Source: Actinomycetes bacterium (GTDB lineage: Bacteria > Actinomycetota > Thermoleophilia > Solirubrobacterales > 70-9). Taken from it: a stretch of DNA of 64,000 bases. Location of the stretch: the NCBI GenBank assembly GCA_016861045.1, contig BOKP01000004.1, positions 310,001 through 374,000 of the forward strand. The letters run 5' to 3'. Of this stretch, positions 4,715 to 64,000 are shown in pieces (the stretch's first letter is position 1; each line of letters starts with the position of its first letter). Below the pieces are notes generated by a model. The model saw only the letters and a program-made list of their open reading frames with translations. It had not been told where the DNA came from and made no database searches. The position numbers and the translations under genes are program-made.

Positions 4715-5983
4715 ATGCGACCGAACCTCTTCCACAGCCGGGCAGGGAATCCTGCCGCGCGCCCGAACACCCTCTTGACGGCCGCGGCGCTGCTGCTTCT
4801 CGCCGCCTGCGCGGCCGCCCTGCTGCTGGGCCCGTCGCCTGCCGCGGCGACGATCGCCGAGCGCCAGGCCGCGCTCGCCGGCGTGCGTGACCAGCAGTCG
4901 TTGCTCTCCGCGCGGCTCGCGGACAGCAACGAGCAGATCAACGCCCTGATCGGCGAGGTCTCGCAGGCGCGGCAGGCCGAGGCCGAGGCCGCGGCCGCGC
5001 TGCGGGCGAAGGAGGAGGAGCTCGACGTCGCGGAGGAGGAGCTGGCCGCAGGGCGCGACCATCTCGCCCGCGTCCGCGAGCGGCTCCGTGCCGCGATCCG
5101 CGAGCTCGAGCGGATCCTCGTCGGCGTCTACAAGTCCGGAGACCCGAACGTCGTCGAGGTCCTGATCGAGTCCTCGAGCTGGGAGGACGCCTCCGTCGAC
5201 GCCACCTACCTCGACCGCGTCCACGACTACCAGGAGGACACGGTCGCCCGCGTAGAAGAGCTGCGCGACGAGGTCGAGAGCACCGTCGCCCGCCTCGCCG
5301 ACGCCAGGGACAGGATCGCCGCCGCCCGCGACGATCTCGCCGCCCGCCATCAGGAGCTCGCCGATCAGCGCGCGGCGCTCGAGGCCCAGGAGCAGCAGCT
5401 CTACGCCGCCCGCGCCGCCCGCCGCCAGACGCTGCAGAGGCTGACCGCCCGCGAGGCGGACCTCGAGGCCGGCATCGCCGACGCGCAGCAGCGCCAGGCC
5501 GAAGCCGCCGCCCCCGACCCAGCCGAGGTCGCGGCGCCGGCCCCGAGCGCGCCGGCCCCGAACGGCGAGACCGCGACGCTCAACCCCGACGGCAGCGCGA
5601 CGGCGCCGGCGAGCGCGCCGCAGCAGGTCAAGGACGTGATCGCGGCCGCGAACGCGATCCGCGACAAGCCGTACCTGTGGGGCGGGGGCCACGGCTCCTT
5701 CGAGGCCTCCGGCTACGACTGCTCCGGTGCCGTCAGCTACGCCCTCCACGGCGGCGGCTTCCTCTCGAGCCCGCTCGACTCGACCGGCTTCATGAGCTGG
5801 GGCGAGCCCGGCGTCGGCAACTGGATCACCGTCTACGCGAACTCCGGCCACGCATACGCGATGATCGCCGGCCTCCGCTGGGACACCTCCGACTCCGGCG
5901 GGGACGGCCCGAGCTGGGCCGACTACTCGAGCTCCTGGGAGCAGTCGCAGAGCTTCACCGCCACGCACCCCGCCGGCTTCTGA
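4715..5983 (+). CDS. secreted NlpC/P60 peptidoglycan endopeptidase with coiled coil
   Basis: This 422-residue protein has a hydrophobic signal or anchor segment at about 20-46. A long Ala/Glu/Arg-rich coiled coil follows to about 265, then a Pro/Ala linker to about 310, then a C-terminal NlpC/P60-type domain. The catalytic cysteine is C336 in YDCSGAVSYAL, and the histidine is H379 in SGHAYAMIAG. The layout resembles RipA-type actinobacterial peptidases, which cut stem peptides of peptidoglycan during cell separation; the coiled coil probably controls access. The gene stands alone between the fatty-acyl operon and a repeat region. Its stop codon is the first base triplet of the tandem array that follows, so its 3' end may vary between strains. 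Confidence 0.9.
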   Translation: MRPNLFHSRAGNPAARPNTLLTAAALLLLAACAAALLLGPSPAAATIAERQAALAGVRDQQSLLSARLADSNEQINALIGEVSQARQAEAEAAAALRAKEEELDVAEEELAAGRDHLARVRERLRAAIRELERILVGVYKSGDPNVVEVLIESSSWEDASVDATYLDRVHDYQEDTVARVEELRDEVESTVARLADARDRIAAARDDLAARHQELADQRAALEAQEQQLYAARAARRQTLQRLTAREADLEAGIADAQQRQAEAAAPDPAEVAAPAPSAPAPNGETATLNPDGSATAPASAPQQVKDVIAAANAIRDKPYLWGGGHGSFEASGYDCSGAVSYALHGGGFLSSPLDSTGFMSWGEPGVGNWITVYANSGHAYAMIAGLRWDTSDSGGDGPSWADYSSSWEQSQSFTATHPAGF

Positions 5984-6263
5984 CCCTCGGCGCGAGAGCG
6001 GCTCCTGACCCGGCGGCGCGAGAGCGGCGACTGACCCGGCGGCGCGAGAGCGGCGACTGACCCGGCGGCGCGAGAGCCGGCGACTGACCCGGCGGCGCGA
6101 GAGCGGCTCCTGACCCGGCGGCGCGAGAGCGGCTCCTGACCCGGCGGCGCGAGAGCGGCTCCTGACCCGGCGGCGCGAGAGCGGCGACTGACCCGGCGGC
6201 GCGAGAGCGGGCGACTGACCCGGCGGCGCGAGAGCCGGCTTCTGACCTCGCGGCGCCGGGTGG
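5981..6263. repeat. 26-27 nt tandem repeat array, about 10 copies
   Basis: The unit begins TGACCCGGCGGCGCG and continues AGAGCGGC plus a variable CTCC, GAC or TTC tail. Units start at 5981 and recur every 26-27 bases to 6242, with a degenerate eleventh copy to about 6263. Two tail variants (CGAC and CTCC) alternate in blocks, which suggests slippage or unequal crossing-over. The first TGA is the stop codon of the NlpC/P60 gene. No long arm symmetry is evident inside a unit. From 5984 to 6504 there is no gene; the array, a unique 90-base stretch and the palindromes at 6353-6464 fill it. Confidence 0.9.
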
Positions 6264-6352: not shown

Positions 6353-6464
6353 CCGACCTGGGGCATTCTCAGCACCGTATGCGGCCGCTAGATGCCCCAC
6401 CCTTGCGGGCCCCTCCGACCTGGGGCATTCTCAGCACCGTATGCGGCCGCTAGATGCCCCACCC
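6353..6464. repeat. two copies of a REP-like palindrome
   Basis: Cores at 6359-6402 and 6421-6464 are identical over about 44 bases, and the preceding CCGACC is also shared. Each begins TGGGGCATTCTCAG and ends ATGCCCCACCC, so the ends can pair (GGGGCAT with ATGCCCC) around the centre CACCGTATGCGGC. A third copy in the opposite orientation lies at 47206-47248. Dispersed, palindromic, intergenic and conserved in the centre, these resemble bacterial REP elements. No transposase gene is seen in the window. Confidence 0.85.
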
Positions 6465-47205: not shown

Positions 47206-47248
47206 GTGGGGCATTCTCAGGCCGCATACGGTGCTCAGAATGCCCCAC
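47206..47248. repeat. third REP-like palindrome, nearly perfect arms
   Basis: GTGGGGCATTCTCAG (47206-47220) and CTCAGAATGCCCCAC (47234-47248) are inverted, 14 of 15 matching. The centre GCCGCATACGGTG is the reverse complement of the centre of the copies at 6.36 and 6.42 kb. It is flanked by a direct repeat of CCCCACCCCCCTCGGCGCGA at 47183 and 47244. The gap 46980-47405 holds this element and the hairpin at 47295-47376, but no gene. Confidence 0.8.
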
Positions 47249-47294: not shown

Positions 47295-47376
47295 GGCCGG
47301 GGGACGGGGCAGGTGCCGCCGACACTCAGCGTGAGCGCAGTGAGTCGCGGAGGGGCGCCTGCCCCGTCACCCGGCC
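47295..47376 (-). terminator. 23-base-arm hairpin after an aldehyde dehydrogenase gene, conserved loop
   Basis: Arms at 47295-47317 and 47354-47376 pair at 21 of 23 positions (for example GACGGGGCAGG with CCTGCCCCGTC). The 36-base loop contains TCAGCGTGAGCGCAGTGA at 47326-47343. It begins 29 bases after the stop of the dehydrogenase on the minus strand. A similar hairpin with a related loop follows the kgd gene at 63.2 kb. Likely a terminator or 3' stability structure. Confidence 0.7.
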
Positions 47377-47405: not shown

Positions 47406-48881
47406 CTACGAGGCCCCGTACTCCGAGTACGGGTACCACCAGGACTTGCGCTCGATCTCCGTCTCCATGTGGACGTGCTTGGTCTCCTGGAAGGCCTCGA
47501 GGCCCTCGCGGCCGAGCTCGCGCCCGATCCCCGACTGCTTGAAGCCGCCGAAGGGGCCGGCGTCGTTGTCGGTCAGCGGGTCGTTGATCCAGACGGTCCC
47601 GGCGCGGAGCTCGCGCATGCAGCGGACGGCGCTCCCGAGGTCGCGCGTGTAGACGTTGGCGCCGAGGCCGAAGCGGGTGCCGTTGGCGAGCTCGATCGCC
47701 TCGTCGAGGTCCTTCACGCGGACGATCGGCGCCACCGGCCCGAACGTCTCCTCGCGGAGCAGGTCGGTCTCGGCGGCGGCCCCGGTGACGACGGCGGGGG
47801 CGAGGAAGTGGCCGCGCCCTTGACCGCCGTCGCCGCCGCCGGTCACGACTTCGGCCCCGGCGGCGACGGCGGCGTCGAGCTGGTCGATCACCTTCTGCCG
47901 CTGCGGCGCCGACACCATCGGGCCGATGTCGGTGCCGACGTCGAACGGATCGCCGAGGACGAGGCTCTCGGTGTGGTCGACGAAAGCGGACACGTAGTCG
48001 TCGTAGACGTCCTCCATGACGTAGAAGCGCTCGGCCGAGGTGCAGACCTGGCCGGCGTTCAGGTAGGCGGCCCAGGCGCCGCCGCGGGCGGCGATCTCGA
48101 TCTCGGCGGCGACGTCGGAGCAGACGATGAACGGGTCCTTGCCGCCCATCTCGAGGTTCACCCTCGCGAGCCGGTCGGCGCAGGCGAGCGCGACCGCGCG
48201 CCCGGTCGCGACCGAGCCGGTGAACGCGATGCAGTCGATCCGCGCGTCCGCCGACATCGCGGCGCCGACGTCGCCGGCGCCGGCGATCAGGTTGACGACG
48301 CCGTCCGGCAGGTGGTCGAGGCACGGCGCGAGCTCGAGCGTCGAAAGCGGCGTGATCTCCGACGGCTTCGCGACGACCGTGCAGCCGGCGGCCAGGGCCG
48401 GCGCGACCTTCCAGGTGAGAAGCAGCAGCGGGTAGTTCCACGGGACGATGCAGCCGACGACCCCGAGCGGGTCCTTGACGACCATCGCGAGCTGGCTCGA
48501 CTCGATCGGCGGGATCACCCGGCCGGCCGAGTCGCGCCCGATCTCGGCGTAGTAGTCGAACGCGGCCGCGCACCAGTCGATCTCGTCCCGGTTCTCGACC
48601 AACGGCTTGCCGCCCTCGCGGGTCATCGTCGCCGCGAGCCGCTCCTGGCGATCGCGGAGCCGGCGGGCGATCTCGTGCAGCATCTCGCCCCGCTCCAGCG
48701 CCGGCGTCCGCGACCAGGCCTCGAACGCCTCCCGCGCGGCGTCGGCGGCGGCACCGACCTGGGCGGCCGAGGCGGTCCCGACCGAGGCGAGCGTCTCCTC
48801 CGTGAACGGGTTCTCGACCGCGACCGGCCCGCCCTCGCCGGCGATCGCCTCGCCGCCGATCAGCAGCCGATGCCCGCTCAC
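47406..48881 (-). CDS. NAD-dependent aldehyde dehydrogenase (aminobutyraldehyde/betaine-aldehyde type)
   Basis: This 491-residue ALDH has GCIVPWNYPLLLLTWKVAP, VVAKPSEITPLSTL, the NAD site FTGSVATG, the catalytic glutamate in LEMGGKDPF and the cysteine in NAGQVCTSAERFYV. It would oxidise an aminoaldehyde, for example 4-aminobutanal to GABA, though the group is broad. It starts with GTG at 48881 and overlaps the potC-like stop by four bases, so it is the last gene of the transporter operon. This coupling of uptake and oxidation is the main argument for an amine-derived substrate. Confidence 0.9.
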   Translation of the reverse strand: MSGHRLLIGGEAIAGEGGPVAVENPFTEETLASVGTASAAQVGAAADAAREAFEAWSRTPALERGEMLHEIARRLRDRQERLAATMTREGGKPLVENRDEIDWCAAAFDYYAEIGRDSAGRVIPPIESSQLAMVVKDPLGVVGCIVPWNYPLLLLTWKVAPALAAGCTVVAKPSEITPLSTLELAPCLDHLPDGVVNLIAGAGDVGAAMSADARIDCIAFTGSVATGRAVALACADRLARVNLEMGGKDPFIVCSDVAAEIEIAARGGAWAAYLNAGQVCTSAERFYVMEDVYDDYVSAFVDHTESLVLGDPFDVGTDIGPMVSAPQRQKVIDQLDAAVAAGAEVVTGGGDGGQGRGHFLAPAVVTGAAAETDLLREETFGPVAPIVRVKDLDEAIELANGTRFGLGANVYTRDLGSAVRCMRELRAGTVWINDPLTDNDAGPFGGFKQSGIGRELGREGLEAFQETKHVHMETEIERKSWWYPYSEYGAS

Positions 48882-62995: not shown

Positions 62996-63126
62996 CTCCG
63001 GGAGGCTAGATGACGCGAGGCTCGTGCCGAGGAGCGGAGATCGCCGGCCCGCCCACGTCCTCGAACGCGGGGTGAGATGCAGATCAGGTACCTGACAGGG
63101 ACCCGATTCGCACCTCACCCGGGCAG

Positions 63127-63144
63127 TCAGCGTTAGCGAAGCGA
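63127..63144. repeat. copy of the conserved hairpin-loop core
   Basis: TCAGCGTTAGCGAAGCGA is the same 18-base core that fills the loop of the hairpin at 63197-63277 (TCAGCGTTCGCGAAGCGA), with one difference. It stands next to, not inside, short inverted arms (about 63069-63080 and 63110-63121). The same core in a more divergent form lies at 47326-47343. Confidence 0.6.
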
Positions 63145-63196
63145 TCCCCTCCCTCAACACCCCGACGGCCCGGAGCGGATCCGAGGGAACGTGGCA

Positions 63197-63277
63197 GGGG
63201 CGGCCGGGGGTGCGGCTCAGCGGCAGTCAGCGTTCGCGAAGCGAATCGCGCCGCTGAGTCGTGCCCCCGGCCGCCCC
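63197..63277 (-). terminator. 28-base-arm hairpin after kgd, conserved loop
   Basis: Arms at 63197-63224 and 63250-63277 pair at 25 of 28 positions (for example GGGGCGGCCGGGGG with CCCCCGGCCGCCCC). The 25-base loop holds the core TCAGCGTTCGCGAAGCGA at 63227-63244. On the minus strand it begins 12 bases after the kgd stop, so it is a probable terminator or 3' stabiliser. Its arms differ from those of the 47.3 kb hairpin while the loop is related. Confidence 0.75.
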
Positions 63278-63289
63278 CACCCCGGGACC

Positions 63290-64000
63290 TCAACCGGTCA
63301 GGGCCGTCAGCACGATCCGCTCCTGCTCGGTGCGGTGGGCCGCCGGGTAGCCCTCCGAGGGGCTCGCCCGCTCGGGCCGGCCGACGTAGCGGATCGGGGT
63401 CTCATCGCCGACCGCGTCCGGCAGGCGCCAGCGCATCGCCGGCCAGCAACCCATGTTCGCCGGCTCCTCCTGGACCCAGACGATCTCCTCGAGGTTCGGG
63501 TAGCCGGCGGCGAGCTCGGCGATGTAGGTCTTCGGGAACGGGTAGACGAGCTCGGTCCGGGCGATCGCCACGCCGGCGGCGTCGGCGCGGCGGTCGTGAC
63601 CTTGGAGGTCGTAGTAGATCCGCCCCGAGCAGAGGATCAGCCGCGTGATCTCGTCGGGGCGTCGCGAGGCCTCGGGGTCGTCGAGGACGTACTTGAAGGT
63701 GCCCTCGGTGAGGTCGTCGAGCCTCGAAGCCGCGTCGGCTAGCCGCAGGAGGCCCTTCGGGGTGAAGACGACCATCGGCCGCGCCTTCTTGATCCGCGCC
63801 TGGCGCCGCAAGAGGTGGAAGTACTGGGCGGCGGTCGTCGGGTTGGCGAGCCGCATGTTGCCCTCGGCGCCGAGCTGCATGAAGCGCTCGATCCGGGCGC
63901 TGGAGTGCTCGGGGCCGGCGCCCTCGTAGCCGTGGGGGAGGAGCAGCGTCAAGCGGGTCGTCTGTCCCCACTTCGACTCGCCGGCGGCGATGAACTGGTC
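63290..64000 (-). CDS. kgd: 2-oxoglutarate dehydrogenase E1, C-terminal part (5' end outside window)
   Basis: The frame is open to base 64000 and 236 residues are visible. FIAAGESKWGQTTRLTLLLP, the thiamine-enzyme motif HGYEGAGPEHSSARIERF, ANPTTAAQYFHLLRRQ and VWVQEEPANMGCWPAM are all typical of the OdhA/Kgd group. In actinobacteria this protein often carries an extra succinyltransferase domain at its N-terminus, which would lie outside. It decarboxylates 2-oxoglutarate in the TCA cycle; acnA lies 2 kb away. Confidence 0.95.
   Translation of the reverse strand, partial: DQFIAAGESKWGQTTRLTLLLPHGYEGAGPEHSSARIERFMQLGAEGNMRLANPTTAAQYFHLLRRQARIKKARPMVVFTPKGLLRLADAASRLDDLTEGTFKYVLDDPEASRRPDEITRLILCSGRIYYDLQGHDRRADAAGVAIARTELVYPFPKTYIAELAAGYPNLEEIVWVQEEPANMGCWPAMRWRLPDAVGDETPIRYVGRPERASPSEGYPAAHRTEQERIVLTALTG

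What the first reader, a model, noticed from the sequence alone, without database searches (positions are those of the whole stretch)
47295..47376. Post-stop hairpins with different arms but a conserved loop (47.3 and 63.2 kb)
Two hairpins directly downstream of unrelated minus-strand genes (aldehyde dehydrogenase, kgd) have 23- and 28-base arms unlike each other. Their loops share the core TCAGCGTnnGCGnAGnGA. A conserved loop on variable stems is unusual for simple terminators and hints at a factor that reads the loop, or a mobile piece that inserts at gene ends. A third core copy lies at 63127.
Basis: partly seen in the sequence, partly recalled or inferred. Interest (0 to 1): 0.6.

Follow-up and report, generated by a model that had tools for sequence, protein, structure and literature searches.

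The report
Gene-end hairpins sharing one bulged head
The two hairpins belong to a previously unlisted family of short palindromic DNA elements, found only in one family of actinobacteria, in which a small bulged tip is conserved while the roughly 26-base-pair stem keeps its length but freely changes its letters, which suggests that some unknown factor recognises the tip.

Summary
Two long hairpins follow the ALDH and kgd stop codons (47295-47376, 63197-63277), with unrelated arms and a shared apical core. The exact 18-base core occurs four times in the 2.7 Mb genome. Three copies are in hairpins 15-36 nt behind stop codons (ALDH, kgd, Lon); the fourth (63127) is a hairpin-less remnant. In 464 kb sampled (176 post-stop regions) those three are the most stable, so they are not the genome's ordinary terminators.

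Covariance models found 47 copies. All strong hits lie in the window's own family within Solirubrobacterales (14 of 232 genomes of the order); none in 395 other genomes sampled across the phylum. What is conserved is not the 18-mer but a head: a capping stem-loop set off from the stem by a 3' bulge, U(C)GAGU. The lower stem is always 24-32 bp and co-varies (27 of 29 pairs change on both sides). Heads can be identical between copies within a genome; arms are about half identical. 24 of 47 copies sit in sense 6-63 nt behind a stop codon. Others lie in promoter regions or are read in frame in linkers of NuoG, DnaX, PDH-E2 and FO synthase.

Best reading: a dispersed, once-mobile palindromic element recognised at its head and retained as a 3'-end hairpin. 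No mobilising enzyme is known.

The parts
47295..47376 (-). Hairpin element copy 1 behind the ALDH stop codon (36 nt from the stop to the modelled element 47302-47369); long arms 47295-47317 and 47354-47376
   Evidence: model R1 match 57.4 bits
47324..47328 (-). 3' bulge of copy 1 (UGAGU on the transcribed strand), the most conserved part of the family
47329..47348 (-).
47406..48881 (-). Aldehyde dehydrogenase gene upstream of copy 1 (PF00171)
63183..63291 (-). Hairpin element copy 2, directly behind the kgd stop codon; 28 pairs within 63197-63277
   Evidence: model R1 match 86.9 bits at 63203-63271
63225..63229 (-). 3' bulge of copy 2 (UGACU, a variant of UGAGU)
63230..63249 (-). Capping stem-loop (P2) of copy 2, GCGAUUCGC-UUC-GCGAACGC; same letters in the Lon copy
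63290..64000 (-). 3' part of the 2-oxoglutarate dehydrogenase/decarboxylase gene (kgd) upstream of copy 2
63122..63144 (-). Remnant: one half of a head (96% identical over 23 nt), no hairpin

Best explanation
Each hairpin is a copy of a short dispersed palindromic element (about 75-110 bp) specific to one family of Solirubrobacterales. Anatomy, on the transcribed strand: a lower stem P1 of about 26 bp, free in sequence but constant in length; then an asymmetric 3' bulge U(C)GAGU; then a small capping stem-loop P2. Shown: the anatomy, the covariation, the lineage restriction, the identity of heads within a genome, the sense placement just behind stop codons, and copies open in frame inside coding linkers. 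Inferred: a trans-acting factor recognises the bulged head on a stem of fixed length, and copies have spread (or been homogenised) in the past through it. Also inferred: copies behind a stop codon are transcribed as a very stable 3'-end hairpin that stops RNA polymerase without a U-tract or protects the mRNA 3' end, which would explain the sense orientation and the retention at kgd, malate dehydrogenase and acyl-CoA ligase genes across species.
For: Covariation: 26 of 29 pairs change on both sides in 16 copies (score 0.559 vs 0.139 shuffled), 27 of 29 in 42 copies (0.659 vs 0.155); sliding the partner by one column abolishes it. Bulge: A 42/42, G 41/42, T 41/42. P1 length 24-32 bp in 47 copies. 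Heads 100% identical between G000 kgd and lon, and between three G001 copies, with outer arms only 48-64% identical. Five G012 copies share one head. Sense within 63 nt after a stop: 24 of 47 copies, 5 of 5 in this genome. Orthologous retention: kgd in 3 species, malate dehydrogenase in 4, acyl-CoA ligase in 3 species of 2 genera. In-frame copies in NuoG, DnaX, E2 and FO synthase. Missing at orthologous sites: ALDH in two relatives, lon in G001. Half-copies beside full copies. Found without the motif: the 3 most stable post-stop regions of 176 sampled all carry the head, as do the kgd 3' ends of both congeners.
Against: Copy number is low (2-10 per genome), unusual for a spreading element. No transposase or binding protein was identified, and Y1/RAYT transposases are absent from the carriers tested. 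No clean empty site with target duplication was shown. Orientation is not absolute: about a dozen copies are in promoter regions or antisense. Models were seeded with the motif, so the conservation counts lean towards it. Arm pairing could be kept by DNA-level correction between arms, without selection.
Confidence: 0.55

Rival explanations
1. They are transcription terminators of a lineage-specific kind: stable U-less hairpins whose head binds a termination or 3'-end factor. Spread and in-frame copies are side issues.
For: Sense orientation and tight 6-63 nt distance behind stop codons; retention at the same genes across species; extreme stability.
Against: No U-tract: at most 5 T in the 10 nt after the stem, no TTTT. 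Only 5 copies exist in this genome, so nearly all genes end without one. Copies inside NuoG, DnaX and E2 genes and between divergent genes do not fit a terminator.
Confidence: 0.25
2. A selfish palindromic element only (like Rickettsia palindromic elements or MITEs), with no function at gene ends. Placement reflects where insertion is harmless, and arms stay paired by template correction between the two arms.
For: In-frame copies in domain linkers, identical heads within a genome, half-copies, patchy presence among family genomes.
Against: Strand bias behind stop codons is not expected of a neutral insertion. Orthologous retention across genera with constant stem length points to constraint.
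Confidence: 0.2
3. A conserved head inserted itself into the tips of pre-existing, locus-specific terminator hairpins, which is why arms differ.
For: Arms differ strongly while heads are identical within a genome.
Against: Copies share a fixed stem length, a conserved G-C pair 17 bp below the bulge (41 of 42) and alignable inner arms. In G001 the lon and glycosyltransferase genes abut with no hairpin at all.
Confidence: 0.05
4. Chance: GC-rich DNA with common stable-loop sequences such as GCGAAGC.
For: Weak model matches (E 0.01-0.5) are spread over the order as chance would give; exact core matches in relatives show no hairpin.
Against: Strong matches (E below 1e-4) are confined to one family of the order and absent from 395 other genomes of the phylum; the covariation score beats all 500 shuffles.
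Confidence: 0.01

Closest known systems
Rickettsia palindromic elements (RPE)
   Same: Short palindromic elements dispersed in the genome and also read in frame inside unrelated metabolic genes (PMC10969869).
   Different: About 150 bp with a conserved peptide reading frame; here the palindrome is shorter, the peptide is not conserved, and it is the bulged head plus stem length that is kept.
REP/BIME repeats with RAYT transposases (GTAG and CGTC families)
   Same: Dispersed palindromes, often downstream of genes, some intragenic (PMC3733652).
   Different: Reported stems are 5-13 bp with a GTAG or CGTC foot. Here stems are 24-32 bp, GTAG is near the foot of 6 of 47 copies only, and Y1/RAYT genes are absent in carriers tested.
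DUF3800-IV RNA (Rfam RF02963)
   Same: Long GC-rich stem of variable sequence under a conserved head; aligns along the arms of one copy.
   Different: 32.9 bits against a gathering score of 60.7; the head does not align. The 16 flanking or host proteins scanned against Pfam are other families.
Intrinsic (Rho-independent) terminators
   Same: Stable GC hairpin just behind a stop codon.
   Different: No U-tract; a conserved bulged head; also present inside genes.
SPRITE / RUP / BOX elements of pneumococcus
   Same: Dispersed short elements, SPRITE being terminator-like (PMC10969869).
   Different: Relation by sequence was not tested; different phylum.

Membership tests
REP/RAYT system | Y1/RAYT transposase in the genome | tested here: not met
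   PF01797: no match in G000, G001, G002, G012, G021, G029, all carriers
REP/RAYT system | GTAG or CGTC tetranucleotide at the foot | tested here: not met
   GTAG/CTAC near the foot in 6 of 47, CGTC/GACG in 1 of 47
REP/RAYT system | Stem of 5-13 bp with family-specific sequence | tested here: not met
   24-32 bp, variable sequence
RPE-like palindromic element | Palindrome dispersed in unrelated loci, some in frame in genes | tested here: met
RPE-like palindromic element | Conserved encoded peptide | tested here: not met
   Peptides differ between the FO synthase, NuoG (G041) and DnaX/E2 copies, though copies of one genus resemble each other
Intrinsic terminator | U-tract after the stem | tested here: not met
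   Mean 2.1 T in 10 nt, maximum 5, no TTTT in 47 copies
Intrinsic terminator | Transcript 3' ends at the hairpin | not testable with these tools
   needs term-seq
DUF3800-IV RNA | Score above the Rfam gathering threshold | tested here: not met
   32.9 vs 60.7 bits; nothing at gathering in the window
Integron attC site | Paired R boxes (RYYYAAC / GTTRRRY) at the foot of the folded strand | tested here: not met
   0 of 47 copies

The most novel reading that the evidence does not exclude
A protein of these bacteria, not related to Y1/RAYT transposases, recognises a U(C)GAGU-bulged hairpin on a roughly 26-bp stem of any sequence, measuring the stem. It both spreads the element, as single-stranded DNA or RNA, and acts on the mRNA 3' ends of central-metabolism genes: a new pairing of structured repeat and recogniser.
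Probability: 0.2. Interest if true: 0.75.

Novelty: new variant of a known kind. Interest (0 to 1): 0.55.

Why it matters
Known palindromic repeats largely keep their stem sequence; this one keeps stem length and a bulged head and lets the stem letters drift in pairs. That is the signature expected of shape reading with one sequence-read spot, so it gives a clean handle on an unknown recogniser. It also links a dispersed element to the 3' ends of kgd, malate dehydrogenase, acyl-CoA ligase and other core genes, and to in-frame protein linker insertions, in a poorly studied actinobacterial lineage.

Tried and rejected
The 18-base core as a search key: outside this genome it returns matches without hairpins, mostly coding. 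REP/RAYT origin: no Y1 transposase in carriers. General terminator of the organism: in 176 post-stop regions sampled only the element copies have such stems. Known RNA family: nothing at Rfam gathering; with loose limits only microRNA-like hairpin matches and a sub-threshold DUF3800-IV match. Virus, phage or plasmid carriage: no exact head in viral contigs, no plasmid match, one weak 34-nt match in a Caulobacter phage gene. attC sites: no R boxes. The extra-stable d(GCGNAGC) mini-hairpin (from memory) would explain the GCGAAGC letters of some caps but not the bulge, and not caps such as that of G012.

Full report
Observation. The window holds two long hairpins on the minus strand, immediately behind the aldehyde dehydrogenase stop (47406) and the kgd stop (63290). 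The core at 63127 is a half-copy without a hairpin. In the whole genome (2.70 Mb, 5 contigs) the exact core occurs four times, against none for the backwards control. The fourth copy sits in a third long hairpin, between convergent lon and a glycosyltransferase gene, with a 27-nt apex identical to the kgd one.

These hairpins are outliers. A blind search for strong stems in 464 kb of this genome found eight, and three of them are these. Of 176 post-stop regions sampled, the three most stable are the three element copies. So they are not how this organism usually ends genes.

Relatives. The kgd 3' ends of both congeners, looked up by gene and not by motif, also carry long hairpins with different arms and a related head; a capping helix TTCGC/GCGAA in G000 is CCCGC/GCGGG in G002. 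A covariance model of five copies found more: two further copies in this genome, behind an acyl-CoA ligase and a LuxR-type response regulator, and many in relatives. A second model of 16 copies, searched over all 232 genomes held for the order, gave strong matches in 14 genomes, all of the window's own family. A third, searched over 396 genomes sampled across the phylum, matched only the window's genome. The best named relative of the window's ALDH is from a Conexibacter MAG, placing the organism in Solirubrobacterales.

Anatomy. In 47 copies the lower stem is 24-32 bp long, mostly 25-28. Its letters vary and co-vary: 27 of 29 modelled pairs have changes on both sides, covariation score 0.659 against 0.155 in shuffles, collapsing when partners are slid by one column. 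Above it lies an asymmetric 3' bulge, U(C)GAGU (A 42/42, G 41/42, T 41/42), under a small capping hairpin of variable sequence and size. A G-C pair 17 bp below the bulge is kept in 41 of 42. The models were seeded with this motif, so those counts lean towards it; the congener kgd copies and the blind stem search are the unbiased support.

Head against arms. Within a genome heads can be letter-for-letter identical while outer arms are about half identical: G000 kgd and lon 1.00 head, 0.48 arms; G001 kgd, SRPBCC and copy 135 1.00 head, 0.56-0.64 arms. G012 has five copies with one head.

Placement. By a simple codon-usage gene finder, 24 of 47 copies lie 6-63 nt behind a stop codon in the sense direction, including all five of this genome. 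Retained examples: kgd in three species, malate dehydrogenase in four, acyl-CoA ligase in G000, G001 and, at 61% protein identity, G047 of another genus. Others lie between divergent genes (ALAD and an ABC ATPase in four genomes). In two other genera some are open in frame inside genes, in linkers between domains: NuoG (hairpin residues about 670-695 between the Molybdopterin domain ending at 619 and Molydop_binding starting at 714), DnaX, PDH E2 (between lipoyl and E3-binding domains) and FO synthase. ALDH orthologues of relatives lack a hairpin, and in G001 lon abuts its convergent neighbour with nothing between. Half-copies lie beside full ones at 63122-63144, before the G002 kgd hairpin and before G001 copy 95.

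Mechanism. The pattern fits an element recognised by shape (stem length, bulge position) and a few letters (the bulge). In-frame copies, patchy presence and identical heads point to past spread or homogenisation; the sense bias behind stop codons and the retention at core genes point to a retained role as a transcript 3'-end hairpin. Neither step was shown. There is no U-tract in any copy, so if it terminates transcription it does so in an uncommon way.

Known families. It is not a REP/RAYT element by stem length, foot and transposase. It resembles Rickettsia palindromic elements in having in-frame copies (PMC10969869), without a conserved peptide. Rfam has nothing at threshold; the sub-threshold DUF3800-IV alignment covers only the arms. 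No viral, phage or plasmid carrier was found.

Noticed in passing
window 47206-47248, 6359-6400, 6421-6462: A second, unrelated palindromic repeat (about 44 nt, GTGGGGCATTCTnAG..CCGCATACGGTGCTnAGAATGCCCCAC) with about 17 copies in the genome, mostly as tandem direct pairs 61-75 bp apart. One copy lies just downstream of the ALDH hairpin.
   Followed up: partly
window 5962-6261: Tandem array of about 26-bp units, eight overlapping copies in register (family D1), shortly before two copies of the 44-nt palindrome.
   Followed up: no
L177 and L275, upstream of the G002 kgd and G001_95 hairpins: Tandem duplication of the 5' half of the hairpin directly before the full copy, as if replication slipped at the structure; the 63127 remnant is a comparable half-copy.
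   Followed up: partly
L185, L292, L191, L295, L298, L278, L289: Hairpin copies open in frame in NuoG, DnaX, NuoF, PDH E2 and FO synthase genes of related genera, adding about 25 residues to linkers.
   Followed up: yes
L292 (G044 dnaX): Two hairpin copies in opposite orientation about 70 bp apart inside one dnaX linker.
   Followed up: no
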